From Opisthorchis felineus (Eukaryota > Platyhelminthes > Trematoda > Opisthorchiida > Opisthorchiidae): a stretch of 64,000 nucleotides of DNA. Below the pieces are notes generated by a model. It did no database searches and was not told the DNA's origin. It was given only the letters and a program-made list of their open reading frames with translations. The translations under genes were made by a program, and so were the position numbers. Where the stretch lies: NCBI GenBank assembly GCA_004794785.1, contig SJOL01008845.1, forward strand, positions 165,744-229,743. Direction: 5' to 3'. Shown one piece after another: positions 3,053 to 64,000 of this stretch; within the stretch, counting starts at the first letter, position 1; each line of letters opens with the position of its first letter.

Positions 3053-3231
3053 GGCCTACCAGACGATCTTCCAATCCATTCTCTGGGAGATGTCATTCTC
3101 CAGGATCAGTTTACCGTGTGGGAACCGAAACAGTTGATCAAAAAGAGCCGTGAGCGACGCGTGTTTTTGTTTGACAATTGCCTGATACTGGCCAAAGAGG
3201 CGTCTACACAACCGGGTGAACACAAGGCCAA
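3053..3231 (+). CDS. Trio: Trio-like RhoGEF, exon B: N-terminal half of PH domain 1
   Basis: This 179-nt exon starts in phase 0 and ends after two bases of a codon at the donor GTCAGT (3232). It encodes GLPDDLPIHSLGDVILQDQF, then TVWEPKQLIKKSRERRVFLF, then DNCLILAKE. The pattern of strand, TVWEPKxLIKK, RERRVFLFD and LILAKE is the beta1-beta4 region of the PH domain that follows DH1 in Trio/Kalirin, where mammals have QVWDPKTLIRKGRERHLFLF. In the family this PH domain packs against DH1 and supports exchange and membrane placement. The unusual GTCAGT donor is supported because AA joined to the first base of exon C restores a lysine and gives AKYHYKS, the expected continuation. Confidence 0.93.
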
Positions 3232-6200
3232 GTCAGTCCGCATGATTATAAACCGCTGTTCACTTGTGTTTCACATTGTTTACAAGCAAACGTATCTCAG
3301 GATTTCTACGTTTCCCGTCGCACAGATGCACTTGTGTGGAGAGACTAATGGTTACAATAGATATTTGCATTCTGACGTAAGCCGTACCGCCAAACAACTC
3401 TGGAATACATTGATTTTGTGCGTATGTGGCACACTATCTATGTAAGCGCACCTCCCGCTTAACGACTTCCTCTGTGACAACCGTGCGCCTAGGAGCTGCA
3501 CGTTATGACCACATCTCCAATACGACCGAATTCGGTCGGGTTTTACGGGGTTTTTACAGACACCGAGTGTTGCAGTTTCAAAATGAACTTGAGCGAACAG
3601 TAAAATCCCAAAAGCAATTATGAACTAATCGGTTCAGATCAAGACAGCCTGACCAATTAACTTAATGTCGGGGCTGTTTTTATGCAGCGGAAAAACGATG
3701 ACAGAATGTTTCAACGATGGTCCACTTCCGTGTATACCCGTGTGTGCCGATTCATTCAATAAACATTTTTCGTTGGACAGTGAACTGCAGTAGCTTGAAT
3801 GCGCATACCTTAGTGTGCGAATTATAGCCGACGTGCCGCACTGCACGTCGAAACCGAGCTCCCCTATGAGAAGTTTACTGCTAAGTTGCCGCCCCCCATC
3901 CTCCATAAGATCCAACCAATCTGTGGCACCTTTCACGAATAAAGGGTTGCTTGTTGGTCAGAACTTGGGTTGCGTAATCTTTATCGGGGTAAGTGGTCAA
4001 TGGAGGGGGGAAGAGCGATTACACTGCGGTGCCTCACTCCGGCACGTCGACTGAACCGAAGGTGGTAGCCTAGGTCCACTTCTACTCGGCGTCGCTCATC
4101 GACCCAAGCTAGGGACATGATATCGATCTCCGTCCAATTCCAGTACCTAAACTGTCGTTTCCATCCAGCGTTTCGTCACATTCCTGTCACTTTTACATCG
4201 CATTTGGTAGGTTGGCAGCTGCATTCCCGGACAAATGCCAGGCGACGCTGAGAATATCATATATACAAGACGCTTTGTTTCATTTTCAAATTAACGCTTT
4301 GCATACTGCAATGTCCGTTGGACTTGGTGCATCCGCCCATCACTGACAGCCTTACACCGGCAGTCACAGGAGATAAACGGTGTGATGCTGAACTTATTGT
4401 GATCCATGTCCTCTTTTATCTGCGTCATGCACGTGGATGTCTTTAGCAATCCTGTTTGCGTTTCATTACTCCTTCCATTGGAAGATCAGTTGGACATCTT
4501 AGTCAAAAATGTTCCGGTTAGTCCATTGGTTTTTGATCGGGTAGGCCAGCAGACACAAAGTCACATGGTTTAATGTTTGAACACATAAAGTGGTAACTCT
4601 CGAATAGTCTTTTCGTGCTTGTTTACCGCCTTCTTTCCGATGACATCAACCTGACAGCAGAACGTCAAGGTGACCCTGTAGGCTCTTCGGCCTTACTCGA
4701 AGCTAAATAATTTCCAAGTTATGTCTCCAATCGCTATAATTTGCCCTCTTCGCAATGTTTGTTGTTTGTTTCACTTAATGGATCTATTCATATATGTAGA
4801 GGAAACTAAGGTCCCGATCTCCGACGAGTTATCTGCTGAGACGTTAGTGTTCATAGAACGTTTCCGGGGGCATCAATCATTTTTTAAGCTCGCCAACCTG
4901 TGGTTCTCGCGTTAAAATTTTTTCATGGGCTTTGTGGACTCCACTATGGCAAGAGGTGTTAGAGTGGCATACCGCGTTTACATGACAGCCGAATCGTGGC
5001 ATTTTCAGTCGGTCACAATGAGTAGTACGGTAGGGAGGTGAAACTTGTTATCCTTGTTATCAGCATCCCCGTTCCATATCAACTGCAATCAATCAATTCA
5101 CAGTGGTTCCAGCTGACAAACTGACTCACTCATAAGTGAGTGGATTTGAAGACTTAGTCGCGTGCTGTAAGTGACAGTTGTGAGTGCTATCGTGTAAATC
5201 CAGTGATTGTGGTTTGTGACCTTTCCCCTAAAGGATGGTTGATCATTTCTCATGATACCCTAGTGCAAGTGCAAGTATGCGCAGAAACAGCCCGACACAG
5301 TTGATGCTAGTGTATAATTACATCGAGTATGGTATCAGAATTTCTGGTTAATTCATGATTCGATGTCATTTGTAAAATTGTTGTGGTTCTAACCTATAAA
5401 ATGGCAAAGTTAGACGCAGGACACTGATCTGTCTGTTCTAATCGTAATTTGTCAACCTCCAGTTTTTGTAATAAGTGACACAACAAACTATTTGAATTGT
5501 TCATCGATGTGTTCGTCTCCCCCGCCTTTGACTATTCACAAATTTCTGGTGAACACCGTTCGCGCTGTCTCGTCCTGGTATAACTCTAGTAATCCAAAAA
5601 CTCAAAGTGTGACAAAGTGGCTTGGAATTTTTTAGTGCAGCAAGCACCAAACGGGGCCAAATCTTTGTTTTGGGGCTGACAAACCTACCGATTTAGTCTG
5701 TCTGAAACAAAATCACATCTAATCAATCTCATGCCAACATACTAAGGGGTTAAGAGTGAAAATCACACGAATACTTAGGTTTTTGTTGACTAAGGTGAAG
5801 CCATTCAACCGAACTGGACGATTCTACTTTGGCTCGTGTTACCAATGAACTGGAGTGAGAGAAGAACGTACTGCTTCGTTCGATGTATGAAAATACGGGT
5901 TGTTTATGTTTTACGCTACGCTTGAGATCCGTAGGGTCTATGAGCTCAGCATACACAACACAAGCAGCCAGTAACCTGGCATATGTCGGGCACAAGTGAA
6001 CTCACTCCAGTCTACATCCACAGTTCCTGAACTCCTGAGGTGAGATGTCGTACATGAGTTTGCAGAGCATCGTTGTACTTATCCGAATCAGTGTCATCGT
6101 TACCCACAGTGAGTTTTAACCTCCCATGAACATTCGTGATCAAATCCTTCTGTCAGCTGTCAATATTTTGTTCTGTGCCTCCGATGAACGTCTTTTTCGG

Positions 6201-21939: not shown

Positions 21940-24907
21940 ATGAAAGTATGCTTTCAAGAAGAGCGGAAAATGGCTTTGTCCAACAAGTCCTCACATTGGT
22001 AACAGCAGACTGCTTTCCAAGAGAGTTATTTCCAATAATACAGCAGCCCAGTGCCCCAGGTTGAAACGTATTTTTTTGTGCAAGTACCATCCTATGCCCA
22101 AAGCCACTGCTTTGGCTGTTCAGGTAGGGTGAACTAACTGGCTTGCACTCGTAAACCATTTGTCTATTTGCTTCTGTCGGCGTAACTTTCACCGCAGCAG
22201 TTTTTGTACCCCGAACTCCTCTATGTAAAACGAGCAAGTACGTTCACCTAAGTGTTCTTAAAGTGGGTGTTTTCATATCGCACTGTTCACATGACTCTCC
22301 CCACAGCCTCGGACACTTGCAATAAGAAACAGATATACAAGTTTGAAAAGCGAAAATGTGCTCTGTATTGGTATTCAAAATTTTGAAGAATAGCCTTCTA
22401 GCTCACAAAAATCCTTACGAGGACTCCTATCCCTTTCGGGGAGAAGTGATCGGTATACTGAGTACTACCACATTCAAAAATGCGGCGCACCTATCAGTAG
22501 CTACAGAACTTAATTCTTTCCAGCAGACGTTTGATTCGATTGAGCAGGTAAACACACAATCACAACGTAGGTTGACATTGGCATGACCCCCATTTCGGTC
22601 CTCCGTTAGCTTGTTCCCAACGTCAAATTGCTGGAAGTTACTCACCATGCAGATGATTTCCATGGTTTCCACTTGCACTCAGCTATCTGGATGGAATCCT
22701 GTTGTACTCAGTAAACCCTACCCTCTAAGAGGTTTGATCATTCTATTTCGGGGTGGGGGGAATAAAATTGGGTGAAATCGACCCAAATTGAAGCAACTGC
22801 CTGTCACTCAGCCTGAGCCATGAGGATTCAAGATCAAATTCGTTAGCGCACGCTCGCTATGTAAGTGCTGCTTCTGTTGGTAAGGACAGGTATTTTGCAT
22901 TACTGAGAGGTAACTCTGAATAAAATGAATCCAATCCGATAGGGGTTCCGTGTGCTTGAAGGCCACTTTTCGGAGTCATCTCGGTTGTTGTAATTTGTGC
23001 TAAAAAACATATTTTTGAGCAAGGACATGCAAATACCAGAAGCTTTTCCTACTGCGTCCGAACCACGTTGCTGAGACATCCGGGTGTACAGGATGTGACG
23101 TTTTGTGAACAGGTGGATCTGAACATACGCAGAAGGTAGGCTTGTGGACGGAACTTGAACTTGTTCGAGCGGACAAAAGTACTTCCTAAATGGGCCGAGC
23201 AAAACGATAAGACAGCAGTACAAAAAATGATGAGCAACCTCGGAAAATTACAAAAAAACTTACCTGTAAAACTCTGAGGACAAGTACAATGGTGTTGTTT
23301 GTTGGTAGGAAAATTTAGTTTTCTCATCCTTGAGAAGGTTGTTCGAACGCGGGCAGTCCAAATTGCGATGGAGAAAATGAGGTAGTCCAATCAGGAAATA
23401 CGCATCCACAGTTGATAGAATACCAAGGTCCATCTTAGAAGTTGCGTCATGGAAACTTCATTTTTTCACCCTAGAAGTACTAAGTTGCAGATTTATTCGA
23501 AAGCATCGGGTGAGTGCATTAGAAAAAAAGGAGAAATAGTGGAACAAAACCACTGAAGTATTAAAAACATGTGACTAGGTTGATGTTTCGATGATCATTC
23601 GTACAACGCATGAAAAGGGATGGAGATATAACTGCTCCTTGAAGAAAACCAGTTGTTACAGGAAAGAGGCAAAGATCACTGCCGTCCAACCCTCGTGTAG
23701 TGGAACCGAAAGGAAAACTAATCAGTAAGCCAACCAAATGCAGTAGGAGAGAGCCTAGAGAAATAAAGTTAATGTAAGAGATGTCTCTTCATATTTGGAA
23801 ATACCGAAGACAACTCGAGAAATATACATTCATCTATCGATTTGTCTGGAGATTAATCAATTGAGTGAATGAGGAATCGGACAGCGTCAGTCTTAACGTG
23901 ATTTCTGTTTTCGGCAAAAATCAGAAGTGGTCGTCGTTCTCTCGATAATTTTCAATAAAGTTGGAGAAAAAGCAATCGGGTGGCACTTTACGGTCTCTCT
24001 CGGAATAAGCACAATGCGAACGACCCTTTAAAGTCCAAATATAGAGAAACTGGATCTGGCATTGTTAGATGAAGTAAAGGGTAGATATCTCTTTGAAGCA
24101 ACCTGTGGTGTCAGCCCCCTCGACCATCGAGTACGATTCGCGACGCGACACAAATTGACTAATCCAGATTTGAGCGAAAAGATCAATGCCCGGAACAATC
24201 CTGTAAGCACAATTAGTCCTGTAGAAGAGAAGTTTTGGTTCATAATATGATATGACGACTTAACACTAGACGTTAGATGGCCAGTTTTCAGAATGGGGGG
24301 CGTGTGAGTCAGTTGTACTAACTTTCCTGTATTCGGAATAATACGGTATGTGGATGCATGTCGCCGGAACACCTGAGTACACTCAACTGCCCGGTTTACA
24401 CAGTCCTTGGGGGCGTATAGCGAATTTCGCTTTTTGCTAAACCACTAGGAGGTTTTTACCTCGCGGTAGTTCAACTAGCATATGTCCGCAAAATGCTTCT
24501 CGGAACTTTTCACAGCATTTTTGATGTCCTTTGGGTGTCAATAAGTCTACAAAATTACAACGGTGTTGTTAAAAATATTACTGCGTGTAACATGGTTGAG
24601 TGCCAGGTGGAGTAAAGTTTACCTCTCTGGATAGGATAACCATTTGCGTCAGTGAATCGACACGATGGCACAGAGTAAAAATCATGGTGTGATTGCCGAC
24701 AACAGATTTCGTTCACTTCATGATGTCCGTATTTTGAGACGTGCATTGGGGCCCAGAAATTCATTGGAGTATTGATGGCTGCGATTATTTAGTTTAATGA
24801 AGCACTGCACTTCACGTGAAGTTTTATGGTCAGAAACATGCAGTGAGCCCTAGTAGATGTGCCTTTTGGATCAACCAGCCACAGGACGTCCTCCTACTTA
24901 GTGAACA

Positions 24908-25025
24908 CTACTCACAAGGTTGCTGCAAACTCTTCGACAGACCAGGACTGATTTCGATCTTCTTGGGGCTCAGCAGGTGGAGTCAGTCCCCGAGTTTCCC
25001 TTAACTTTATGGGCCACTTGAACCT
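24908..25025 (-). repeat. Hammerhead-bearing repeat, copy 1 (single arm)
   Basis: Starts CTACTCACAAGGTTGCTG on the + strand. Read on the minus strand it has CAC-CTGCTGA (core position A6 changed to C), a GCCCCAAGAAG stem II start, GAAA, then CAGTC as the degenerated cleavage region. The long outer stem I is still present: GGAAACTC pairs with GAGTTTGC, and CATAAAGTT with AACCTTGTG. Decayed and probably inactive. It is the only copy outside the cluster at 52.9-63.6 kb. Confidence 0.8.
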
Positions 25026-28000
25026 ACCTACGTAAGATTACTTTGAATGGTGATACGGCTTTATCTGAGGCTACTGCACGTAGTGAGTTCAACTCTATCG
25101 GAGAAAGAAATCGATGGGGAGTCCTAGCGAATATGACTTGAATTATAGGCAGCCTTTGGTGTCTCGCATTACATTCTGATGAGTCTGTGCCCAACGACGA
25201 GGTAAGTTACATAGAATTCACTGGGGGTCTAAACCGCTTCCTAGGGGTGGATTTCGAATTCGGCCAAACAAGAGTGTGCAACAAAAGTGTTTTATGTTCT
25301 CCATTCGCCTGTCCCATGACTCTTTTGACTTATTTCCAAGGGCTAAATCCACTCAGTGAGGCAACTGCTGACAGACGGTTGATTGTCTTTCTGCCACCGT
25401 CCTCCACGACGAAAATACATAGCTTTATTTCCGCTAAATTAGAACAACGTTTTTCATGCCTTTTCATTCATACTAATTGGTTTCTACCTCAGCTGCTCAG
25501 AGGAATACTGGAAATGTACGGCTCAGAGCTTATGTCCCCACCCCACCCCCCAAAAAAAAATTTACCAAGATGCCTGTCCTGAAGGTGCACGCTCTTCAAA
25601 GAGAGGTGACTGTACTTCTTTTAGAATGCACTCATGCCAACACCGTACTGTGTAAAACCAGTCTTGCCACTCCAAAAGGTCAGCATCACCGTGAACAGGA
25701 GATCCGCTTTCTTATAAGTTCCACCACTTGAACACTCGTCGGCCAAAGCCTGTGCGTGATCCAGTTGTGAAGCCCTTTTAGTGTTCCCAGCCTCACTGTC
25801 AACTTCTCCAGTCAATATTGCGCGTCTGGTGTATCCTTCCGGTACAACATTCACAATGAGACGTTTTCTACGCCTGTTTGTGGCCATTTATGGCGACCAA
25901 CATGTACTCATACGACCAGGGATCCACGACATCAGAAACCGTGAATCATCCGAACGCTTTAGGACGGACAGCTCTTGAACGTTATCTAAACCAGCCGACC
26001 AGATGAAGATTGGAGTGGGTCGTGCAATAAAAGACCGTGATTGATGGGAGTTAATGAAACGTGATCGGTCTGTTGGGCCGGGCTCCGCGATAATGGAAGA
26101 GAGACAATGGGATCGCTTCAGCAGAGCCTCGGGAAGACATAACTGACAAGATGTTAACATTTCCTTTACGTTTATCAGTCATCCACGTAAATAATATATT
26201 AAAAGGTCCATCAATGACAACTGTAGTTTGAAAATTATGTGAAGACCTTCAGAGGGAATGAGGTGTAGTCGGGGCCCAATGCCAAGTTAGACGTGTGGGA
26301 GAAGGAGGCGATCCAGAGCAAATAGGCCAATGACTGTCCGAATCGGTGCGAAGACTGCCAGCCAATCATCTCACTATCTCAGTGTACAACTGAACGTCAA
26401 CACAAGCCAAGGTCATCCAATCAGAAAACCTCATCTGTTTTAGTCAGCAACCCAGATAAGAAATTGGGTGCACCGCAAACAAATAACGGCCACCTTACAC
26501 AAGTTACCAATGCACTAGTCAGGGGCCGTACCAATCACAATCACGCGAATTCGAACAACCAACACAGGATTCGGAACGCTGTCCAGGATGCTTGTTTGTA
26601 TGCTAATAAATCAGTGATTTCGCGTCATAAAATGGGTGTCTCCAGGGTCGAACCGAAACCCTTTCTTGACTAATTCCCGGGGTCACAACAATCGAAAAAC
26701 TGATTTTGAAATTTACCTGGAATCGGAAGCCTGGCAAATTTAAACTGACATGACCATCCAGAGCCCATAGATAATAATTTTGTGACAGTCAATGCCATAG
26801 TGAGCGTAGCGGATTCCGAAATCTGGCCAGACTATCACTCGTTTTTTAACATGTGAACACCTCAGAATTGTAATTCGACCCGTACGTAAATCGTCTTAAC
26901 ACTGATGTGAACTCATCAATTGAAGGTTACCGAATAGTCGGAAAATGAATTATGAATGAGAACATTGCTTAATTAATTATTTAATCACTAGCGGAAAGGT
27001 GACAATCTCCCCAATGCTGTTCTATCTTGGACATCCTAAATAATACCTGGTGCTTTTTTTCTAAAGAAGCTGTGGTCCCAGAGTTTGCGAGCAGGTTGAA
27101 GATTTGTCGTTCACCAACAGCGTCCACTCTCCTGGGGTCTATATGGCGACCGATATAGGGCAACTAAACTTTGTTTTACCATGCGTTTACACTAATTTCA
27201 GTGTTTGGCGATCAGTAAACCCAATAATTTGATGTGAACACATTGGCATATGTTGTCTGTTTACCGATGTGGTTAGCCAAGCGTGGGTGCATATGTACAC
27301 AGTCTACAGTGCAAACAGTGGCTGGCCGGGAAAGCGTGGATAACTTGTCGAGCCGAAATCTCCACTCGATTTCTTCTCTACACGCGGCCTCAATTTAAAC
27401 AGTTTCTACTGTACATAGAGCAGGATCATCTAGATCCTTTCAACAGAACTATAATAGTTATCCCAAATGACTGCTGGTGGTGTATCACACAACTGACCAG
27501 TTTTCACGGAGCTTTACTAGCCTCGAAAGTACGTTCCACAGACACACAAGGACTAACTTGTTGTTCACAGTCAGCCACCACAAATACACAACGCATATAC
27601 ATCTGTACGAACACGAAAATTAACAGTGCGAATCTCCTCCTGTTCACAGCATGTTACTTTTCCTGCCTCCATGATCACCTCAGGGGACACGAAAATGAGC
27701 AAAAATGTTTTGTACTTAGGAAAAGACCACAAAGTAGCACAGAAACTGTCTTACCGATCGATTCATATGCATCTCAGAAATCTTGAATGTCCTGTGGATT
27801 TATGACATGCCGTGAACTCTGAAGCAAGTTTCACTTTTACCGAACATCCTCAGTGGCCTCTGCAAACCCGGAGAAGAGTAACTGGACTTTATCAAACGTC
27901 AAAGTCAGTTTAACTCTCCTGACCTTAACGGGCCAACCATCTAGCTATTCACAACTCAGTCGTCAGTCCCTGGCCTCCACTTGCATGGTTGAGATTTTGC

Positions 28001-50847: not shown

Positions 50848-52954
50848 GTTGGACGCATCCGAATTTTTACATCTGAACAGGTGAACATGTTCGCGCTTGA
50901 GTGATGTGAACGGAAAGCCCGAAGCCTCGAACGACGACCCAGTAACATACCTTGGTTGTGTCGATCGATTGGCCCGCCAGTCAGGACTTTCCAGTCAAAT
51001 AGCGCCACAGACGCTTGAAATTTGGTGGACAGATTTTCCGGTGGAAAGCAGTGTATTCTCGTCCATGTATAAGCTTCACACAAACATGACGACCAGATGC
51101 CAGATTGGTGTGGTAAATCAACTTGCATTAGGCTCTACGGACAAGGCCCTGCAACAATTCCTCCTCCAGATATTTGGTTCTTTTACAGCACCTGAAGAAT
51201 GAAATATCCGATAGCTGCGTGCATGTTTTTTTGTGATAAAAAAGGCGTATTTTGTCTGCAACACTAGGCGTTGCACGCGAAACACCAGATGACCGTATAC
51301 TTGCGAGGTAAATATATATCTTTATTCCGACTTATTTTCACTTCAAATCAGATTCGAGACAACCCTTATTTTTCAACAGCAACCGGTATTTCCACTGCCC
51401 CGGTTCCCAAAAGTACCCCTAAGAGAACACTGCATTGTTGTGTGAACCCAAAAAAGACAAGTGTTCATCTAACAGTGATTCGGTACTGAAAATTTTAAGG
51501 AATATTTTAGGTTTCGTCAAACTGGAGTTATCCCTGTTCAGAGAGCGGCTTTTTCCAGTAGTCAGTTGGCAGAGCACAAACAAGATCAGCAAAGCTTCCG
51601 GTGATCTCATTTTAAGCAGTAATTGCACAGTTCCGGTCTGTCGGTTGCTTTCCATGTTGTTTAATTTTCAAAAACGGAAGGTATCAAATGATCCGCTTAC
51701 TGATACTTTCATTCAATTGTACAATTCAAGTTGAGTCAAGTTTATACACCGCCAATCTGTTAACTTTCAGCTGAGATGGATAATAAAAGTGTTAGTTGTG
51801 GTACGGTTTTGCCTGTTCACTGGCACTTGCCGTGAACCACGAGGATCATGAACCTTATGCTTTCTCCAACTGGAATATAACAATTTAGCTGAACACAATG
51901 CAGTAAAAGTCCAATACAACGTTAAATGTGAATCAGAATCATTCGTTCTATTAATGTGGACACCGTAGAAGGTTGTCTTGACCACATTTGACCCACCCTC
52001 CGACCTATCAGCAAACCTCTTTACTGATCACCGAAAGGGGTTTCTTTCTCACGAGCAATGATATTTACCAAAGTACACTTGAGAAGTACCAGTGTAAACA
52101 CCAGCATGGTTAAGCACATGATTCCAGGATCTGTCCCTTCATTAGAATATGCATTGTCGTTAGTTATCCAAAAACAGCATAACTGTATTTCAAACCGGTG
52201 ATTTGTCAGTGAGCCAAACGATGCCTAGTTCACAATACAAGTGATGCCTCGAACGATCTTTTTTCCGAACTGTCTACGTGTTGAATCTAACTTGACCTTA
52301 TGATGATTCCCCCATTCACATTTGCTTACTTCGCCTATGTACTTTTGATCTCCAGTTGTTTCGCTTATCCGTACCCGCCACTCACCTTACCTCAGAGGCC
52401 ATCCCGTCTGACACTTGTGTGTTGGCATGTGTGCCTGTGTGTGAATGTGTACAGCTGACCTACTTACCCATGCGCGTTCGTATCCCGTTTGCTGAGCCTG
52501 CCTTGACTTGCTCCGTGTGATCGCACGGCCAATGAGAGTCCCGAGACTGTCGTCTGAAGGGACGACCGCAACCCACACTACTGAGCCATCATTCCGCTCG
52601 CCGTTGTTTGGTGTGCGGACGTTGACACTGTACCGTGCCGGTTAGTGACAGACCTGTGCACTTGTTGACTCTACGAACGTGAATAATTGAGGTTTGTTGT
52701 GCACATTTGTTTGCTCTTGTGTAAATAATACCGTAGAATTTGGAACCCAATTCTTCCTTTTGATATTCGGGACTGTCGAACCTACGCGTCACTCGAAGTT
52801 CCGTATCGGGAACCTCAACACTACGTGCCTTCAGTGAATTGTGCTTGCCTCTCTCCAGCATTTTCGACGATGTTGAATCATTCTAGTTAGGCAGTTTTGA
52901 CCCTTTTCAAGCCAGATCAGATCCTTCAGAACGTTCTTGTCTAGACGTAATACA
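50848..52954. other. Stretch without recognised genes
   Basis: A 101-codon frame (50897-51202 +) follows the SINE but matches nothing known. Nothing else recognised. Confidence 0.5.
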
Positions 52955-53165
52955 CTACTCATAGGATTGCTAAAAACTCTTCAACAACCCACCAACAGTT
53001 TCGCCCTTCTTTGGGGCTCATCAGTTTGGCGCAGTCCCCGAGTTTCCGTCTAACTTATGTTTATCTCGAACCCAAATGAATCAGATTTCGACAAGCAGAC
53101 TACCGTAAACGAGAGATTTAGCTGGATTCAGTTGCGTCTCCTGTCAAAACCAATTCCGTGCGTGT
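52955..53165 (-). repeat. Hammerhead-bearing repeat, copy 2 (one arm plus spacer)
   Basis: The arm starts CTACTCATAGGATTGCT. On the minus strand: GCGCCAAA-CTGATGA, stem II GCCC/GGGC, GAAA, but the cleavage triplet is lost (CTGTTG in place of CCGGTC). Then, on the + strand, the family spacer follows, with AACGAGAGATTTAGCTGG at 53108 and TCCTGTCAAAACC at 53138. The second arm is missing. Confidence 0.82.
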
Positions 53166-53945
53166 TTTGACTTCCTGACGGTAGTGCAACTGATGTGTCG
53201 GTTCTTGGCTTCCTGCCCCACTCATTATAGCAAAAGGCACGGTAGCTTGAGACAGCCCTTTATAGAGACCAAGCAAGATTATTACAGCCGTATTTATAGG
53301 GTTATCACAGAATATTCCACAAGTTCGCTCTAGAATATTAGTGAGGGGGGCGAGAAGCGTCGAGCTATAGATGCTCAACCCGGATTGGCTGATATTCTGA
53401 CCGTAGCCCGCATGTGAACCATCAGTCCAATCGACGTGATGTTCAGTTATTAAGTGTGCTGATGAGAGTATTTGTCGAGATCAGAACGTTGTTTCACAAG
53501 GGTTGCCCTATTTACCGAACAAGTGCACTTATGAGCTCCGCAGACTTTTCGCTCCATGCTAACCAGTGATGAAAACATTCCTTTAGGGTTAATAGTGAAT
53601 AACTGATTGCCGGTCTGTTCGACAATAGTCTTATAATCTGCGGAAACATGAATTGCGCGTTGTCACCAAGGTAAAAAGCCCAAGAATAAACAAGTTCCAA
53701 AGTGTGTGAACGCACATTCTGAAGAAGTTTTGAAACAAGGAAGACAACAGTGTAATCATCTGGATGCGACAATAAAGGCGCAAAGAAACGAAAATGAATG
53801 CTAGCAACGAAGTTATCTCACTTGCAAATTACGTTGGTGTTAACCAGAAACTCAACTGGATATCTCGTTTTGTGATATTCTTCATATGAATGTGCTAGAC
53901 AAAGGCAGTTTCATATTTCAATTGGTGTATTTCCTTGACAGAACA
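53166..53945. other. Stretch without recognised features
   Basis: Lies between two hammerhead-bearing repeats; nothing recognised. Confidence 0.5.
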
Positions 53946-54223
53946 CACTAGTCAAAAGACTGCTGAAAGCTGATCGACAGTCCATGACCGGTTTCGTCGT
54001 TCTTGAGGGCTCCACAGGGTAGGTACAATCCACGGATTCCGTTGAGTTTCTCATTGACCAGTATAACTTGCAAATGAGTGCATATCGCCAGGTGTGTACA
54101 ATTTAGTGTTCTAGTTGTACATAAGATTGACAGAAACCCTGATGCTGTGCCTACATGGTGAACCTCAAGAAGGGAGAAGCCGATTGTGGGCTTTCGATGA
54201 GTTTTCAATCACACTGTGAGATA
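53946..54223. repeat. Hammerhead-bearing repeat, copy 3 (two inverted arms)
   Basis: Both arms present. The left arm (53946 to about 54052) carries the ribozyme-like core on the minus strand, with GAAACCGGTC intact but CTGATGA decayed to CTGTGGA. The right arm (about 54122-54223) carries it on the + strand: GTGCCTAC, ATGGTGA in place of CTGATGA, a CCTCAAGAAGG stem II region, GAAG, GATTGTGGGC. The outer ends are complementary in sense: CACTAGTCAAAAG left, TTTTCAATCACACTGTG right. Full unit of about 280 bp. Confidence 0.8.
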
Positions 54224-54296
54224 AATATACTGCGATATCTTGCATGTTGTCTCAAGTGGGACGTGAGGCAGCCTAGTGCAGTACAATCAGTTGGAG

Positions 54297-54522
54297 AAGA
54301 ACATCTTAAATGAGAGATTCAGCTGGAATCAGTTGAGTCTTCGGTCAAAGTCACCTTAGTATATAAATGAGACTAGTTGTCGAATTCCGTCCGATTTGGG
54401 TTCAAATAGAACATAAGGTTGACAGAAACCCGGGGACCGCGCCTACCTTGTGACTCCTAAGAATGCCGAACCCGGTCATGGACTGTTCGAGAGTTTTCAG
54501 CAACCTTGTAAGTAGTATGTGA
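54297..54522 (+). repeat. Hammerhead-bearing repeat, copy 4 (spacer plus one arm)
   Basis: The spacer (ATGAGAGATTCAGCTGG, near 54310) is followed by the arm on the + strand: ATAAGGTTGACAGAAAC, GCGCCTAC, CTTGTGA for CTGATGA, CTCCTAAGAA, CGAACCCGGTC, ATGGACTG, GAGAGTTTTCAGCAACC, TTGTAAGTAG. The C just before the core (position 2.1) and the G/A after GGTC support the stem I pairing deduced from other copies. Mirror image of copy 2: spacer and right arm only. Confidence 0.82.
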
Positions 54523-55487
54523 TGTTGAATTTAAATGCTGCCTTTGGTCCACGTACTAAACTAAATATTTGAGTCAACAAACTCAAAGAGGCAATCTCTC
54601 TTCCTTCTGAGTTAGTGGAGTAACAGCATGACGGTCCTTTATAGGAATTAAGGAACGTCCCACATCCCTTCTCGGCGGATCACGTTTATCGTGCTTGAAC
54701 GAAGCCTTAGTGAGGGCACGTCCGTTTCAAAGTCTTCACTTAAAGGAGCACTAGATACCTTCATTTGACCCAAGGGATTTTCGTGATTCCATCAAGCATC
54801 GAAGCTCATGTAGTTTTTACAAGTGCAGTCTCACCAAAAGAAGAGTCTATCGTGTTGACACGCATTAGTACACAGCCTTTTTGGTACCTTGTAAAAGTAC
54901 CTGGTACCGCTGAATACTTGAGCAAACTAGTTTGATCATTTGCTGGGAGACAAACATTCGGCTACTCTTAATATATGTGGGAACGGATAACAATATGAAA
55001 CGAAACAGTGGTACTGATTTAGATCTGTCCGTAAGTTACACAGCCCATCCATGACTGGTGAACATTTAGGAAATCGTGGTGGTTGGTCAGCTGGCAGTTA
55101 GTCAGTTCATCGAGCTTCGCGACTGGCTTGCACCACACGAGAAGATATTTGCAACCCCGTAAATAACCTCAACAAACCGATCAACTGCCACCTTATCGAC
55201 GGACAAGGTTATCCACATGCATACTTGATTACTCAGTATGGTTGACTGGGTTACGTTGTTTATAAACGGACTCGCTGTTTTGCTCCCCATTGCTGTTCGT
55301 TTTCACAAACCGGTAAATTACATGAACAAAAAAGTATTTGTGTATAGCGATTCTCAGTTGGATTCAAATGCCTGTGCATTTAGAGCCACGTAATTCTGTT
55401 TCCGTTAAATAATAAACACGTTTTCCCATTCAGTCTGCCTACTTGTCCAACTCGCACTGTTAAAATAGATACGCAACCCTGAAGGAA
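54523..55487. other. Stretch without recognised features
   Basis: Nothing recognised between hammerhead-bearing repeats. Confidence 0.5.
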
Positions 55488-55597
55488 ACTACTCAAAAGG
55501 TTGCTTAAAACCTTCGACAGCCCGTGACTGGTTTTACCATTTTTAGGATCATCAGATAGGCGCAGTCCCCGACTTCCCGTCAGCCTGAACACTCCTA
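55488..55597 (-). repeat. Hammerhead-bearing repeat, copy 5 (single arm)
   Basis: Minus strand: GGGGACTGCGCCTAT-CTGATGA, a weak stem II (TCCTAAAAATGG), AAAACCAGTC at the cleavage region and ACGGGCTGTCGAAGG. The CTGATGA core and the outer arm ends (ACTCAAAAGGTTGCTTAAAA on +) are present, but stem II and the GAAA box are damaged. No second arm seen. Confidence 0.8.
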
Positions 55598-57525
55598 ATA
55601 AAAACCAGGTCAGATGGAAACAGGACGGTGTACGCTCGAGTTCTAGCCGGCTAGATCGTGCAATCGGCAGGTTTAGTATTTGGCCAGGTTTCGCCGACTT
55701 TTCAAGTCTTGGGGTTCTGGTCTGTAACACTTGGGTTGAAGGTTCCTTCCGAATGTAGTTAACCGTTTCGTGGTCGCCGTGGATGGGTTAGCGGAAGGGG
55801 GCTACATGAGGTTTTGGGTTGGGCTTCCTACCTTAGATCTAAATCACTGCAGTTGGTGCCTCCTTTTGGACTGAAAATCACACACCGTCACGTGTATCAG
55901 CTAGGAAAGACGGAACGTAGGACCACCATCCCTCAAACGCGCCCCCTCACATTATCCTTTGTTGATTGGCTCTTCGACTGATGAGTTCTCAGATTATGTC
56001 GCGTGTAGGCAGTCAACAAGAAATAAAGGCGTCTGAGGATCAAAGACAGAAAAAATACCTCAAGTCATTCGACCATCAACTGCGCCCAAAGGCAAGAAAA
56101 GCAAGATACTGGAAGTCATTCGATTAAACCATATAACCATTTCATGCTGTGTTCGCGCTTCTGTGTATATAGACAGGTATGATGTCAAGTTAGGTGGTAA
56201 CAAGAATAGTTTGGTCCCCTCGTTTCCTGTCCCCCACACCATATATATGCAAGAAGACAAACAAGGTCCTCAAGCGAACGGTGCTACGCACTGTCGATAC
56301 GCTTCAAAAAATCAGGCACTGGAGAGTGCATTGAGTCGGTCGGTAGCTGCAAACTACACATAACCGACCTTCCCTGGTCGAGTTCTGCAATCAGTGTCAC
56401 AGAGGCTACTAAAAGCCTACAGTGAGTTACCGGTAGCCACCATAATTTATATTAAGGTAGACGAATCACGATTCAATAAATTTGGTCTCAGCATGACGCA
56501 GCAATACCCGCGTGGCAACGGGACACCAATTTCAACCAATGAAACATTGAAGGAAGTATTTTGGGAAACCCATTACTAGGGGCAGATTCCGAGGGGAAGG
56601 ATTGGCTACCTTATCGAACCGACTCACAACTCGATGAGAACGGAAATCTAATGGAAATAAATCTTGGTCCTTTGGAGGCGACGCCGGTCTCAGTGGCATG
56701 AAGACACTGTTATCAAACAGTCAAGTCCCAACAAATACAAGAAAAAAACACTGAATCATTACTCAACATCGAATACCAAAGAGTGTAACGAAACACAAAC
56801 TGTTAGATAGGATGGAGACGATAACACAGCAGAATATAAGTGGACTTAGAGACGTCATTGGCCACCAACAGGACATACTTCGAGGTGGTTCACACCGGAT
56901 TGTGGCTTTCTGTGGTCCATGTACGTCCGCTGTAGTGTATTGTGTGATGTTGAATGTTGATATAAGTTATTGCTTCATGTATGGCTGCCGTTTACAACAA
57001 GCCCAGAGTTCATAACTGTGATTTGCTCTTGTGAGGTTTGCTTGAGGTAGAGGCTGTGTGGGAGGCTTGCGTCCTCCCAAAGACCAGCTACCTGGAAGCA
57101 AAGATTACAAAATTATGTCTGCCCCATTCAAGAAGATCAACCGTAACGTCAACCGTCCACTTTGGATGTGCATGAACATGTTGCGGGACTAGCGTTCATG
57201 GACTGGTTTGGATCATTCGACCACAGGGGAGTTTGTTTACCACAACCATCCGTCTAACCTATTACAAAAAGTACGAAAGATTTATTGCTTCCGATTTATT
57301 GTTTCGTGCTCACTGGTGAGTCACCACGTGAGTGGGTTACGAAAACACTCGATTGTAATGTTTTGAGACTCAGGCCTGCAGCGTCGTTCGTTGTCATCTG
57401 GATTCATTCACGAAAGAGATGTTGGAAACATCAACGTTCACTTTCTCACAAACTTTGTGGGTCGGACTGGAATGTGGGTGCCGCGATTCAGTCGGAATAG
57501 ACTGGCGAATACACCCATTACGACG
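55598..57525. other. Stretch without recognised features
   Basis: No gene, RNA or repeat family recognised. Confidence 0.5.
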
Positions 57526-57912
57526 CGTGCAGACATGTTATGTGAATTTCGTTTCAACAGGGTTCAAATTCATCAGTACCTTCAAAACCAAATTGGTATG
57601 CAAATGAGTGTGTTTCGCTACTCATAAGGTTGCTGAAAACTCTTCGGCAGCCCACGACCGGTTTCGCTCATCAGGTGAGCGTAGCCCTCGAGTTTCCTTC
57701 AACCTTAAAAATATCATAAGCGAGAGATTCAGTTGGCTTCCAGGTGAGTTCCCCCTCAAAACCAAATTGGTATGCAAATGAGTGTATTTCGCTAATTTCG
57801 TGCAATTTGGGTTCACGTAGAACAGAAGGTTGACGGACACTCGGGGATTGCGCCTAACTGAGGAGCCTCAAGAACGGCTGTCGAAGAGTTCTCAACAACC
57901 TTAGGAGTAGTA
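57526..57912. repeat. Hammerhead-bearing repeat, copy 6 (two inverted arms, extra spacer)
   Basis: Left arm 57618-57715: on the minus strand CTCAC-CTGATGA-GC-GAAACCGGTC-GTGGGC. Core, palindrome and cleavage triplet are intact, but stem II is deleted down to GC. Spacer 57716-57800. Right arm about 57801-57912: on the + strand GCGCCTAACTGAGGAGCC, CTCAAGAA, then GGCTGTCGAAGAG; the GAAACCGGTCGTG segment is deleted. A 39-nt piece of spacer (57582-57620) also precedes the left arm and matches 57756-57794 with one difference, as if two units had been joined. Confidence 0.85.
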
Positions 57913-60021
57913 TGTTAGCTCTATGAAAGCACTCACATTCTGACAGTCTCCAATATGTGGTTCAGACTAGCAAACTTACTATTGTCCGGGATACGGGCCG
58001 GTCCGGACGGTACAACGTGCTTTTTTGTTAGCAAGAGTTCTGTCAAGGTTGATACCTCGCCTGGGAATCCCAGTAAGTCAACACGGACTTGTTCAGCTCA
58101 GACGCACTTTGGAAACCAGGGTATTGCGAAAAAACAGCAGAACCATGACCAAGGAATGTTCCATCCATATTAAGTCACAGATATCGAAACTGATCACCCA
58201 CACTTCTTCCCAAACTTAAATGAAAGGGGTACACAGTTGGTGATGTAAATTTATCTGACCAGAAAAGTAGATATGGCCGCTGTCACAGGTCACAAAATAT
58301 ATTATAACGCCGTCCTTTCGCAATCACGGAGGCCAAATATTCAATCAATTTCCGAAACTAAATAACTTACATCTGAAGATCCATCGAATATCTGCCCCTT
58401 TCCTGTGCGTCTTTGTTCCAGTGAGATTGCCAGGGATTACGAGGTCCTCAATGGAAGCCATCAGCGATGTACATCAGCCGGCAAGCGGCGGGCAGGAATC
58501 TATTAAGGACGCCGTGGTTTATCTCAGTCTCACGATTCTGTGAGCTTTATCCTTGAGAATAAAGTCTTTGCGGATTTGTTGTACGCACTTTCGATCCAGC
58601 AAGAAATCCGGCTGCATGAACATTTCGGGACGAACACCGGAAAATACCTCCTTCACCCCATACACACAACCATTGAAACCAGGAGGCTTAGGCCGTCTGA
58701 CGCGTACCACCGTTTGTCACCTATCCATAAGTCACTATATCTATACACCTTCAATGAGCGCTCATTGAAACTTGGTGAATAGTGCACTTAGACAAAATAT
58801 ACGGAAAACAATGTTGTTAACAGAGCATGTTCAGCACGACTTCATGTCTGATTGTTCCAACAAAGCGTGAAAGTGGCCAACGAACACAAAAATCGCGCTG
58901 AAGCTAACCCATCCAAATGTGACGAGATTATTTCACACTGGAGGAAAGTAAAATCTCGAGCGTATTTCACTTCCTTCCGCTTAGACTTCCGTCTGGGAGT
59001 TGCCATAACCTCAAATTAGATGCATAAACTAACTTACCCTCATGATAACTAAGTTCACACCGCATTAACACACTCATAAAAATTCCTGAAAATTCGTTTC
59101 ATTTCGTACGACTCATTGTTTCCCCAGACAATGCTAATTCCAATACGCGAAACCTTACACTTTCCACCGCCTTACCGGTTATTTCGGATTGTCCATCCGC
59201 CGATTTCGGGCGGCCTGCTTAAAAATAACCGTGTTCTAATCGAAAGGCACATTCGGCTCTTGTCAGACCCCGGATGTATTTCCTTTAACGTCCTGGTAGA
59301 CACCTCAGCTGAAAGACATAGGGGTGCTTGGAAAAATCCTCCTTCGACAAACCTTGACGACTAAGTTTCCCATCTGGTTTGTTCACATGTAATCAACTCA
59401 TCCCTAACCACCTCTCGGACGGCGCTGGTGTGTGATTACACACGAGAACATTTGAATATGAAAGCTTTGTTGTTCCTCACCCCACGTTCATTCTTACTTC
59501 AGAGACGCCCATTGGAACCGAAATTCTAGACCTAACGTATTCTCATATCTAGGCATCTTTGTTTCTCCTGTTGTTTAGCCTTTCCACTCTCCCTTTGTGC
59601 CATCTATCTGCGTGAACGTCCCTGTACCCCGGGTGAAACAGTTTTGTCTGTAAATCCGTCAGCATTAGTGAGGGGAAAACCTCTTGTCTTGTCCTCTTAT
59701 GTCTTGTCATGAACACTTGGATGCATGATAAGTGTATGCTTCCTAACGGCTCCCATGACAATCAGAAATCGAGGGAAAATGATTGAACCAAGTGCCTCGC
59801 CTGTTGTGGAAGAATGGGTAGACAGTTTCCTCCGGTAAACAGGGCCATTTGATAACCGATCGTTTGTTAAAGAATACCTTCAGAGTACAGGCACCATCTG
59901 CTAAATCTGTTTAACGCGAAGAGCAGAAATTAGGGCGTGAACGTATCCGCGCACGGTTCGCCCACTACCTACTACTTATTTCGTGTTCAAATCACTTTCG
60001 TTTGAACAGTCATCTTCGTGT
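57913..60021. other. Stretch without recognised genes
   Basis: Some frames (58519-58710 on -, 59116-59364 on +) look mildly protein-like but match nothing I can name. Confidence 0.45.
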
Positions 60022-61590: not shown

Positions 61591-63406
61591 TCCGAAAATG
61601 CCAGATTTCTGTTGTTTTCCTCTTCAGTTGTGTACCTGGTTTATATTCGTATGCTCATTTACTGCGCAGAAAATTTCGTTTTGACTTACAGCACCGACAG
61701 TAACAAGGTAAGCGCTTAGTGGGAATAATTGTACGATTCATCCAACAAGGAGTATGTGCACTCGATCTCCATTGATATGCAGAGGAGAACCACATTCACA
61801 TCGAATAATTTTGTGGAAAGATGAACCAGAATCAAGTTCCCATGAGTACTCTGGAGTGTGTGATGTCGGATGGTGCATTTTCGAGAATGATATGGATATG
61901 AAAACATCTCCCGTGCGCCCGCATAGACGGGAAAGCTGGCAAGCCGACCTGAGTTTGTCTTGTTATCTTCGTGATTCTGATTATCCCACTCCTCAAGGTC
62001 ACCAGTGATGGCGCAAAATGTCGAGCAATAGACCTGGGTTGACTAACGATATGGGTGGATATTTCGTCCTGTAAATGAAGTCAATCTATACTACAAGCAC
62101 TGTACATCTGTTTCATCATTATTTAGAGCCATCAGTGGTGTGTGCCTCTCATGAAACTCCAGAAAGTTTCGAAGCTAGTATTTTCCCATTATAATCCAAC
62201 CGACTTGACCTATTTTTCCGTCTGCACCAGTTATCTCGTTTTGTACTCTGTCCCGTTGGTTTACCAGCCCACTCATGCGCTGAATGAGGTTCGGTTCAGT
62301 GTACTGTGCACTTTTCCCAAACTACTGGTTGACCGCTTTCAACCCAACCCCATACTCTTAGTCCGCATGCCTGCTGATTTTTCTGGGGTTTCGCAGATTG
62401 TATTTATAGTTTCCTTACCCCACGCACATTATCACGACATTGTTTGGTTTGTTCGACTGCTCAGCTAAACCATCAGGGATCATTAACTTAGTTCACTGTC
62501 CGAGTCAAATTGGCCAAACTGTTAGGTCAATCATCGGATATCTTGCCAAAACCTGCTGCTGGTTTACCCAAACCATTGCGGGAATGTCAGGCTGAATGTT
62601 CACACTTTGAAAAGTGGATACTACGTATGAACAGCCTGTTTAAGAATCAGATTTAATGGATAGCAGTGGTCAAACCACTGGACACCTCGGCACATAGTTG
62701 GAGGGCCGCAGACAGCTTGCGTGGGGCTTTATTCAAACCCTTGACGCCTATCCGGACCTAAGGGAATAAGACCAGTATTCGAAGATGCAAAGACTTGTTG
62801 TATGTCATTAGCCGGCGTAAAAATGACGCACCGGCACCAGTTACTGTTTATCTCAGAGGTGTCAATATCATCCGTTAGCTTCTGTAAACTTCAGCATGAT
62901 AACATACCTTCGCAAGTATAGTAGTATTCAGATATTTCCGAGAACTGCCCACTCTTTTACAAGGTTTCCTACAAGTAACTAAATTCCAGTCGAATTTCCT
63001 GATAATAACGCCAGCCACTGTTGTGTCAAATTTATTCTTTCCTAGTTACCAACATAGAAGTTGTACTGAATAGTCCTGTTAAACAACTAAGGGAAACAAG
63101 GTGGTGACCTTTAGGGGGGGGGCGAACCCTAAGTCCGACCAAAATCGTCCCCTTGTGCACCGAACTTCATTAGACAAGGGCTTGGTCTTCCTGGCTGTAG
63201 ATAGTTCTGAAAGACGCTATATTATATCTAGGATTTTTACTTCATTGGTTTGTCATTTCCGAACTTCAATGACGTTTTTGCTAGACCCAATCCGCTCGAT
63301 ATCCACAAGGAGGGTATGACACTGATACAACATGGTCACATAGACGAACCTTAATGTTTTCGGGATCTCGTCGTCAGGTAAGTACACATGTAGTATTCGT
63401 AATGTA
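61591..63406. other. Stretch between PLE relic and hammerhead repeat copy 7
   Basis: About 1.8 kb where the 5' part of the minus-strand PLE would be expected. I could not recognise RT core motifs on the minus strand. A 108-codon + frame (62142-62468) is unrecognised. Confidence 0.45.
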
Positions 63407-63528
63407 CTACTCATAAGGTTGCTGAAAATTCTTCGACAGCCCACGACCGGTTTCGCCCTTCTTGGGGCTCATCAGTTAGGCGCAGTCCCCGAGTTTCCAT
63501 CACCCTTATGTTCTACTTGAAACGTATG
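63407..63528 (-). repeat. Hammerhead-bearing repeat, copy 7 (best-preserved arm)
   Basis: Single arm, starting CTACTCATAAGGTTGCTG and ending TTATGTTCTACTTGAAAC on the + strand. It holds the most complete hammerhead-like core in the window (see the ncRNA entry). Its outer ends are self-complementary, so the arm folds back on itself apart from the second arm seen in copies 3 and 6. Confidence 0.88.
63421..63498 (-). ncRNA. Type I hammerhead ribozyme-like motif
   Basis: Minus strand, 5' to 3'. Outer stem I strand GGAAACTC (63498-63491); internal loop; inner stem I strand GCGCCTAA (63483-63476); core CTGATGA (63475-63469); stem II GCCC, loop CAAGAA, GGGC (63468-63455); GAAA (63454-63451); palindrome ACCGGT (63451-63446) as a minimal stem III; cleavage triplet GTC with predicted cut between 63445 and 63444; inner stem I strand GTGGGC (63444-63439); outer strand GAATTTTC (63431-63424). 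The first stem I pair (A-G) is mismatched here. Copies 1, 4 and 6 have C there, which restores it. A stem III made of ACCGGT cannot loop on one strand and implies pairing of two copies. Confidence 0.8.
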
Positions 63529-64000
63529 TAGTAGTTTAAATAGGGGTAGACGATGAAATAAAAATCTAAGATCTAAAATCTAAATCCCAGAACCTTGTTG
63601 CGTATCTCATCTATTCACCCTTGGATATCAGTGTAAGCCGTGGACTGAGAGTACACGAAATAAGGAAAATGGAAATTACCCCGCTGTGATCATACCTCCA
63701 ATTGTCCTGAAAAATTTCGTCAGGTGAACTGGGGTAGGAAAAGCCCCATGTGCGTTTATTGCCAGATGTGTCGAATTAGCGAATGAAAACCGCATCAATA
63801 GCTTCACAGAATCACTTTACGTAAGGATCAGTTAAGCACGAACCTAAATCGCATTAACGGCACGCCGGGTTTTGCTTAGTCATAACAGTACCTCCAATCA
63901 ACGGACTGATCATCATTTAGGAAAATGGACCAATCACCGTAGATATGGGTCGCAATTCCCATTGGTCAATCGCTGAGCTATTTTATCGCGCCTCAAACAA
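63529..64000. other. Right flank
   Basis: Contains a short run of ATCTAA-like words (63562-63587). No gene recognised up to the window end. Confidence 0.5.

What the first reader, a model, noticed from the sequence alone, without database searches (positions are those of the whole stretch)
63407..63528. Small interspersed repeat carries a nearly complete hammerhead ribozyme
Seen: on the minus strand CTGATGA, stem II GCCC/GGGC with a six-base loop, GAAA, the palindrome ACCGGT, the triplet GTC and flanking strands that pair as stem I (GCGCCTA with TGGGC, then GGAAACTC with GAATTTTC, then CATAAGGGTG with CAACCTTATG). The order is exactly that of a type I hammerhead. Known: hammerheads occur in schistosome satellite DNA and in terminal repeats of Penelope-like retroelements, the latter with a stem III of only a few pairs that works best as a dimer. 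Inference: this family is a hammerhead-bearing, probably PLE-related, non-autonomous element.
Basis: partly seen in the sequence, partly recalled or inferred. Interest (0 to 1): 0.92.

Follow-up and report, generated by a model that had tools for sequence, protein, structure and literature searches.

The report
Hammerhead-ribozyme jumping repeat in a flatworm
The spot marked is one worn copy of a small, gene-less jumping repeat whose RNA contains the self-cutting hammerhead ribozyme, and the way its relatives sit in the genome suggests that they were copied in by a Penelope-type reverse transcriptase.

Summary
Window 63396-63525 (-) is a solitary, 5'-truncated insert flanked by an 8-bp duplication. 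It carries a type I hammerhead with intact CUGAUGA, GAAA and ACCGGU-C, but an A·G mismatch at the base of stem I. Rfam HH9 scores it 31.8 bits (E 2.6e-6), below its gathering score.

The genome has 3528 matches to a strict ribozyme pattern, 0 to the reversed one. Some copies stand in tandem, mostly at 307-bp steps; the unit is non-coding with 47% GC. That is the anatomy of a metazoan non-LTR retrozyme.

New here is the insertion grammar. Of 90 mapped 3' ends, 72 fall at two sites and none at the ribozyme cut. Two-armed inserts are head-to-head, 28 against 0. In 8 of 8 well-bounded inserts with both ends at the sites, one end uses each site. A Penelope-like element of this genome shows the same in 3 of 3 two-armed inserts. 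A purified Penelope enzyme extends both target strands from two internal RNA sites without ribozyme cleavage (PMC11167929). I infer Penelope-type mobilisation. Shared-tail evidence is weak, covariation absent, nothing bench-tested.

The parts
63396..63525 (-). the insert: 5'-truncated copy of the 307-bp retrozyme unit, from about U14 to about U141-143 (priming site B)
   Evidence: BLAST to unit U (L002:1181-1487)
63388..63395 (-). target-site duplication TACTACAT, copy at the 3' side of the element
   Evidence: exact 8-bp match to 63526-63533; 8 bp alone can be chance (shuffled-flank control 1.8 of 62 at 8 or more)
63526..63533 (-). target-site duplication TACTACAT, copy at the 5' side of the element
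63501..63510 (-). outer stem I, 5' strand CATAAGGGTG
63412..63421 (-). outer stem I, 3' strand CAACCTTATG
63491..63498 (-). middle stem I, 5' strand GGAAACTC
63424..63431 (-). middle stem I, 3' strand GAATTTTC
63476..63483 (-). inner stem I, 5' strand GCGCCTAA; 63476 is the A at 2.1 that makes a G-A mismatch
63469..63475 (-). hammerhead core CUGAUGA
63455..63468 (-). stem II GCCC-CAAGAA-GGGC
63451..63454 (-). hammerhead core GAAA
63446..63451 (-). ACCGGU, a palindromic stem III of two or three pairs with almost no loop
63445..63447 (-). GUC; predicted self-cleavage 3' of C at 63445 (U92 of the unit)
63439..63444 (-). inner stem I, 3' strand GUGGGC
63394..63403 (-). ATTACGAATA: end of the insert, priming site B of the family (last two bases overlap the duplication)
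53932..54077 (-). old family copy, left arm of a head-to-head pair with 54098-54235
54098..54235 (+). old family copy, right arm of that pair
57607..57727 (-). old family copy, left of a head-to-head pair 69 bp apart; stem II deleted
57797..57925 (+). old family copy, right of that pair
54386..54530 (+). old family copy; related 5' flank from about 54297
52941..53084 (-). old family copy; CUGAUGA and GAAA kept, cleavage triplet lost
55480..55618 (-). old family copy
24894..25036 (-). old family copy

Best explanation
The feature is one decayed copy of a non-coding retroelement of the metazoan non-LTR retrozyme kind. Its unit is about 307 bp, with a type I hammerhead at the tip of a 99-nt hairpin (U27-125, cut after U92). 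Shown by sequence: thousands of ribozyme cores, tandem arrays, target-site duplications, two preferred 3' ends (A near U303, B near U143), head-to-head two-armed inserts, one A and one B end where both ends are mapped to the sites, and no 3' ends at the ribozyme cut. Inferred: a Penelope-type RT-endonuclease cuts both target strands; each strand's 3' end primes reverse transcription at one of two internal sites of the retrozyme RNA; the two cDNA arms are joined, which leaves the head-to-head insert. The template is often RNA not ended at the hammerhead cut: uncut transcript beginning near U218, or a religated circle. The hammerhead probably cuts multimers into unit-length RNA in a parallel or earlier step.
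For: Ribozyme: HH9 31.8 bits for the window copy; over 13 loci that I chose, 20 of 23 rows at E 0.01 or better are HH9, at least one per locus, 11 of them at 36.0 bits; 1 gathering-level hit over L001-L020 (RF00163, L009, 36.7 against 34); 3528 pattern matches against 0 backwards. Tandem: 11 cores at exact 307-bp steps at C14:132116-135216; steps of 293-312 bp, mostly 307-309, in L002, L006, L014, L020, L025. 3' ends: of 90 mapped, 34 in range A, 38 in B, 18 elsewhere, 0 at U87-97; by locus set 34 of 39, 23 of 34, 15 of 17 in A or B, ranges that cover 18% of the unit. Orientation: of 72 usable inserts 28 '-+', 0 '+-', 42 single, 2 three-armed. Duplications of 9 bp or more in 20 of 62 against a mean of 0.3 with shuffled flanks; of these 20, 8 have both ends in the ranges, all 8 A/B; 11 have one, 1 none. 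All 28 '-+': 11 A/B, 11 A/other, 6 B/other, none A/A, B/B or other/other. Penelope-like element: GIY-YIG over cut-off in L091, L092, L094, RT piece whose relatives carry PF00078, 3' end with 2735 first-look candidates, 40 scored, 40 matching. Of 7 loci read, 3 are two-armed (L092, L095, L098): head-to-head, end 1 on one side, tail end on the other, duplications of 10-13 bp. PMC11167929 (parts 1-2 of 4 and passages read): a purified Penelope protein cleaves and extends both strands, starts at two internal sites, and needs no hammerhead cleavage.
Against: The A and B ranges were set after seeing the ends. No firm sequence is shared between A or B and the Penelope ends: young ends do not resemble the Penelope tail, an older subfamily only weakly (best score 8; 1% of window 23-mers ending in GAAAA do as well). 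Covariation across 27 copies is no better than shuffles (0.146 against 0.145). Of the 28 two-armed inserts 17 have one end outside A and B, some at assembly gaps. Some two-armed calls rest on opposite pieces of only 22-30 nt, and independent inserts up to 45 bp apart would be merged. Only 3 Penelope two-armed inserts were read, and their tail end is not one exact point: 29 nt past end 1 in L092, 39 in L095, with only 8-9 nt of it in L098. L091 showed no duplication and no second arm; L094 is one-armed. The Penelope hammerhead-like motif is not recognised by Rfam. No RNA data were at hand.
Confidence: 0.66

Rival explanations
1. The same retrozyme is moved by a LINE through target-primed reverse transcription with occasional twin priming, as described for L1.
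For: Duplications, 5' truncation and inverted arms also occur with LINEs (recalled); 5' ends are scattered. LINE families of this genome were not searched.
Against: L1-type twin priming gives one fixed 3' end and one random one, and starts at the RNA 3' end (recalled). Here 8 of 8 well-bounded inserts with both ends in the ranges have one end of each kind, and a Penelope-like element of this genome shows the same grammar in 3 inserts.
Confidence: 0.17
2. The circular RNA is the only template (the published retrozyme model); A and B are accessible places on the circle and U218 is a strong stop for the reverse transcriptase.
For: 0 of 90 3' ends and 1 of 90 5' ends lie at the cut, as a closed circle would give; A and B lie in or beside predicted loops of the folded circle; tandem inserts suit rolling copying.
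Against: 5' ends cluster at U208-226 (21 of 90), which a circle gives only if this is a stop; but by set the counts are 9 of 39, 10 of 34 and 2 of 17, so the contig-order set does not confirm the cluster.
Confidence: 0.35
3. A DNA transposon or MITE: the head-to-head copies are terminal inverted repeats of one element.
For: Inverted arms with target duplications.
Against: Arms differ in length, content and inner junction from insert to insert; tandem 307-bp arrays; the two ends are different sites.
Confidence: 0.03
4. The hammerhead resemblance is fortuitous.
For: Window copy below Rfam gathering scores; no covariation.
Against: 3528 cores against 0 with the pattern read backwards; HH9 matches at E 1.4e-5 in 43 kb; one gathering-level hit.
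Confidence: 0.02

Closest known systems
Metazoan non-LTR retrozymes (Cervera and de la Pena 2020, PMC7229834; parts 1-4 of 6 of the text read)
   Same: Type I hammerhead, about 300-bp tandem unit, GC below 50%, non-coding, duplications longer than 4 bp, thousands of motifs; platyhelminths are named there among hosts of such repeats
   Different: GC is 47%, above the 45% of their figure 1C legend. No comparison with a named family was made. The insertion grammar (two sites, head-to-head arms, A/B rule) was not in the parts I read
Penelope-like elements, Poseidon of Anolis (PMC11167929; parts 1-2 of 4 and passages read)
   Same: Both target strands extended, two internal start sites, hammerhead cut not needed for insertion in vitro
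   Different: Codes for RT and GIY-YIG; its hammerhead is minimal; its two start sites are adjacent (a 30-40 bp tail between them), whereas A and B here are about 147 nt apart
SMalpha / Sjalpha SINE-like elements of schistosomes (PMC8490949, passages read; Ferbeyre 1998 and Laha 2000 as cited there)
   Same: Flatworm repeat of about 335 bp with a type I hammerhead of very short stem III
   Different: Described as SINE-like; no convincing pol III A and B boxes were found near the 5' end here. Sequences were not compared: no schistosome sequence was at hand

Membership tests
Hammerhead ribozyme, type I | Conserved core CUGAUGA, GAAA, UH with three helices, open at stem I | tested here: met
   window copy has a G-A at 1.1-2.1
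Hammerhead ribozyme, type I | Rfam gathering score | tested here: inconclusive
   reached nowhere in the window; reached once over 20 loci (L009, RF00163)
Hammerhead ribozyme, type I | Self-cleavage | not testable with these tools
   no bench
Hammerhead ribozyme, type I | Compensatory changes in the stems | tested here: not met
   27 copies, score 0.146 against 0.145 shuffled; expected for copies that decay after insertion, so I do not count it against the ribozyme
Metazoan non-LTR retrozyme | Type I hammerhead inside tandem repeats of 150-450 bp | tested here: met
   steps of 293-312 bp, mostly 307; many copies, this one included, are solitary
Metazoan non-LTR retrozyme | GC below 50% and no coding frame | tested here: met
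   47% GC (above the 45% of the paper's figure 1C legend); longest stop-free run 66 codons over three joined units
Metazoan non-LTR retrozyme | No LTR, primer-binding site or polypurine tract | not tested
   no such search was run
Metazoan non-LTR retrozyme | Target-site duplications longer than 4 bp | tested here: met
   9 bp or more in 20 of 62 against a mean of 0.3
Metazoan non-LTR retrozyme | Expression as linear and circular RNA | not testable with these tools
   no RNA data
Penelope-like element | ORF with RT and GIY-YIG | tested here: not met
   unit has no long frame
Penelope-type mobilisation (works like) | Both strands primed, two internal start sites | tested here: inconclusive
   the genomic signature fits; the reaction itself cannot be tested here
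SINE of the SMalpha kind | Internal pol III promoter | tested here: inconclusive
   best A-box match (8 of 9) lies inside the hammerhead; best B-box match 6 of 10

The most novel reading that the evidence does not exclude
Metazoan retrozymes are moved by Penelope-type RT-endonuclease acting as a pair: each subunit extends one cut target strand from a different internal site of one retrozyme RNA. The usual template is RNA not ended at the hammerhead cut. The insert grammar (A on one end, B on the other, arms head-to-head) would then be a genomic fingerprint of this dual-priming mechanism, shared by retrozyme and Penelope element.
Probability: 0.5. Interest if true: 0.8.

Novelty: new member of a known kind. 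Interest (0 to 1): 0.6.

Why it matters
The 2020 retrozyme paper leaves open who mobilises animal retrozymes and names Penelope-like elements as a strong candidate, on co-existence, shared type I hammerheads and tandem copies (PMC7229834). The insertion grammar found here gives a test on sequence alone, applicable to any animal genome with retrozymes. It also bears on whether the circle or uncut RNA is the template, and on how Penelope enzymes complete an insertion. A report elsewhere is possible.

Tried and rejected
Covariation as proof of the ribozyme: not significant on 27 copies; uninformative for copies that decay after insertion. For that alignment I took 25 of the 29 diverged copies listed, left out four (identity 0.59-0.75), and added L002 and the window copy. 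Pol III boxes near U218: no convincing match, so a start at U218 rests on end clustering alone. Shared tail with the Penelope element: an older subfamily ending TTTCCTTTATGAAAA and variants resembles the Penelope tail, but scores are weak and young ends do not match. Similarity of A and B to each other: 8 of 10 letters for a hand-chosen 10-mer; 31 of 42,673 pairs in the unit do as well; suggestive only. Rfam on the Penelope loci: no hammerhead, so the CTGATGA...GAAACGTT motif there is my reading by eye. mir-7445 and mir-3149 hits in L013 lie on an inverted junction and were set aside. Viral contigs: no match to a 20-mer of the repeat. Rows dropped: insert analysis kept 72 of 95 clusters, leaving out those cut by a locus end, with best identity under 88%, or without a placed locus start; 10 more dropped for N in the flanks (62 left); end counts kept 91 of 134 non-redundant segments. 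The 88 loci overlap in part and are not a random sample: 28 by similarity to the window copy (not every listed match was fetched), 30 by similarity to U145-300, 30 by a core pattern in contig order.

Full report
What is there. On the minus strand at 63396-63525 lies a 130-bp insert flanked by TACTACAT on both sides. The order is stem I, CUGAUGA, stem II, GAAA, a tiny palindromic stem III, GUC, stem I: a type I hammerhead at the tip of a long hairpin. The base at 2.1 is A, giving a G-A at the base of stem I; this copy may cut poorly (inference). Rfam HH9 matches at 31.8 bits, E 2.6e-6, gathering 52; nothing in the window reaches gathering.

The family in the window. Nine copies are found by BLAST and by an iterated profile. 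Of these only the given copy has all core motifs together with stem II. Two pairs, 53932-54077(-)/54098-54235(+) and 57607-57727(-)/57797-57925(+), stand head-to-head.

The family in the genome. The host assembly has 630 Mb in 1848 contigs. A DNA search gave 2061 first-look candidates, of which 40 were scored and gave 44 matches, nearly all at 94-98% identity. A strict ribozyme pattern has 3528 matches, the backward control none. Cores lie exactly 307 bp apart in an array of 11 at C14:132116-135216, and 293-312 bp apart in L002, L006, L014, L020 and L025. I used the unit L002:1181-1487 (U, 307 bp) as reference: hairpin U27-125, cut after U92. Its GC is 47% and the longest stop-free run over three joined units is 66 codons. 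As a circle it folds at -99.8 kcal/mol against a mean of -77.6 (sd 5.5) for 100 mononucleotide shuffles. The host is probably a flatworm: among the best 120 of 230 relatives of the Penelope RT piece, most of those with an organism name are Spirometra/Sparganum, with Opisthorchis viverrini at up to 81% identity over 65% of the query, and a mantis shrimp lower down. This is inference.

Ribozyme tests. Over 13 loci that I chose, HH9 takes 20 of the 23 rows at E 0.01 or better, at least one per locus, up to 36.0 bits; the other three rows are microRNA families on one inverted junction. Over L001-L020 one copy passes a gathering score (L009, RF00163). In 46 copies under 85% identity, 15.6% of core cells differ from the reference, 20.9% in the rest of the hairpin, 25.8% and 28.3% in the flanks and 23.3% far away. 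The set is partly picked by core pattern, so this is mild support. Covariation among 27 copies does not exceed shuffles.

Insertion grammar. Eighty-eight loci, some overlapping, gave 134 non-redundant segments, 91 of them young (88% identity or more, 60 nt or more). Of 90 mapped 3' ends, 34 lie in range A (U293 to U7), 38 in range B (U124-156) and 18 elsewhere; none lies at U87-97, the ribozyme cut. The ranges were set after seeing the ends and cover 18% of the unit. The excess holds in each locus set alone: 34 of 39, 23 of 34, 15 of 17. Of 90 5' ends, 21 lie at U208-226 (9 of 39, 10 of 34 and 2 of 17 by set) and 1 at U88-98. Grouped into inserts, 72 of 95 clusters were usable: 42 single, 28 '-+', 0 '+-', 1 '-++', 1 '--+'. 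So in the two-armed inserts the 3' ends point outward. Duplications of 9 bp or more occur in 20 of 62 inserts against a mean of 0.3 when flanks are mismatched. Of these 20, eight have both ends in A or B, and in all eight one end is A and the other B; eleven have one end in the ranges and one has none. Over all 28 two-armed inserts, 11 are A/B, 11 A with another end, 6 B with another end, none A/A, B/B or other/other. Merging of neighbours up to 45 bp apart and opposite pieces of only 22-30 nt are weaknesses of these counts.

A Penelope-like element in the same genome. A GIY-YIG search (150 of 553 candidates scored) gave 6 matches. L091, L092 and L094 carry a GIY-YIG piece of the Penelope kind, with an RT piece bearing a YVDD motif in L091 and L092 (the naming is mine; relatives of the RT piece carry PF00078). 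Its 3' end is repeated widely (2735 first-look candidates, 40 scored, 40 matching). I read seven loci. Two kinds of end occur: CGACCAT (end 1), and a tail of 29 nt (L092) or 39-40 nt (L095, L096, L097) past it (end 2). Three inserts are two-armed: L092 (tail left, end 1 right), L095 (end 1 left, tail right) and L098 (end 1 left; on the right only 8-9 nt, TATAGAAAA, of the tail's end). They are head-to-head, with duplications of 10-13 bp. L094 is one-armed with end 1 and a duplication, L091 one-armed without a duplication found, L096 more complex, L097 runs into N. A published purified Penelope enzyme cleaves and extends both strands, starts at two adjacent internal sites with the optional 30-40 bp tail between them, and does not need hammerhead cleavage (PMC11167929, parts 1-2 of 4 and passages read).

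How it most likely works. Shown: the anatomy, the count of cores, tandem steps, duplications and the end grammar. Inferred: a Penelope-type enzyme cuts both strands, each strand primes at A or B of one RNA, and the two arms are joined. That two different sites are used suggests two active subunits on one RNA; the published enzyme is predicted, not shown, to be a dimer. 3' ends avoid the ribozyme cut, so the template is hardly unit RNA ended by the ribozyme. It is either uncut transcript or a closed circle; the U218 cluster leans towards a linear RNA with that 5' end, but not in every set. The hammerhead's part may be to trim multimers into units that can circularise, as published for other retrozymes (PMC7229834, parts 1-4 of 6 read).

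Membership. It meets the tested features of metazoan non-LTR retrozymes (GC only under the 50% limit, not the 45% of a figure legend); circular RNA and self-cleavage were not testable, and PBS or PPT were not tested. It is not a Penelope-like element. Schistosome SMalpha is the nearest named flatworm kind in the passages read (PMC8490949), but no sequences were compared.

Verdict. The finding is real and belongs to a known kind. Its value lies in the insertion grammar, which gives a concrete, genome-wide test of the proposal that Penelope-type enzymes move animal retrozymes.

Noticed in passing
L095:868-953 and homologous 3' ends in L091, L092, L094, L096-L098: The Penelope-like element carries CTGATGA-T-GTCACC..GGTGAT-GAAACGTT (or close variants) near its 3' end, a possible minimal hammerhead; Rfam did not report it in the six loci scanned (L090-L094, of which three carry it, and L095).
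   Followed up: partly
L096/L097, around end 1: AGCTCAG and CTGAGCT flank an A/C-rich stretch that holds end 1, reminiscent of the AC-rich stem loop where the Anolis Penelope enzyme starts.
   Followed up: no
L006, L014, L060, L062, L063, L069, L072, L088: An older retrozyme subfamily has a different B end (TTTCCTTTATGAAAA and variants) that weakly resembles the Penelope tail.
   Followed up: partly
window 2966-3445: Exon-like frame with a SOS1/NGEF-type PH domain (Pfam PF22697).
   Followed up: no
L013:1675-1734: Rfam microRNA hits (mir-7445, mir-3149) fall on the inverted junction of a two-armed retrozyme insert, so such junctions can mimic microRNA precursors.
   Followed up: partly
L091:2583-2792: A diverged retrozyme-like stretch lies about 390 bases from a Penelope-like element copy.
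   Followed up: no
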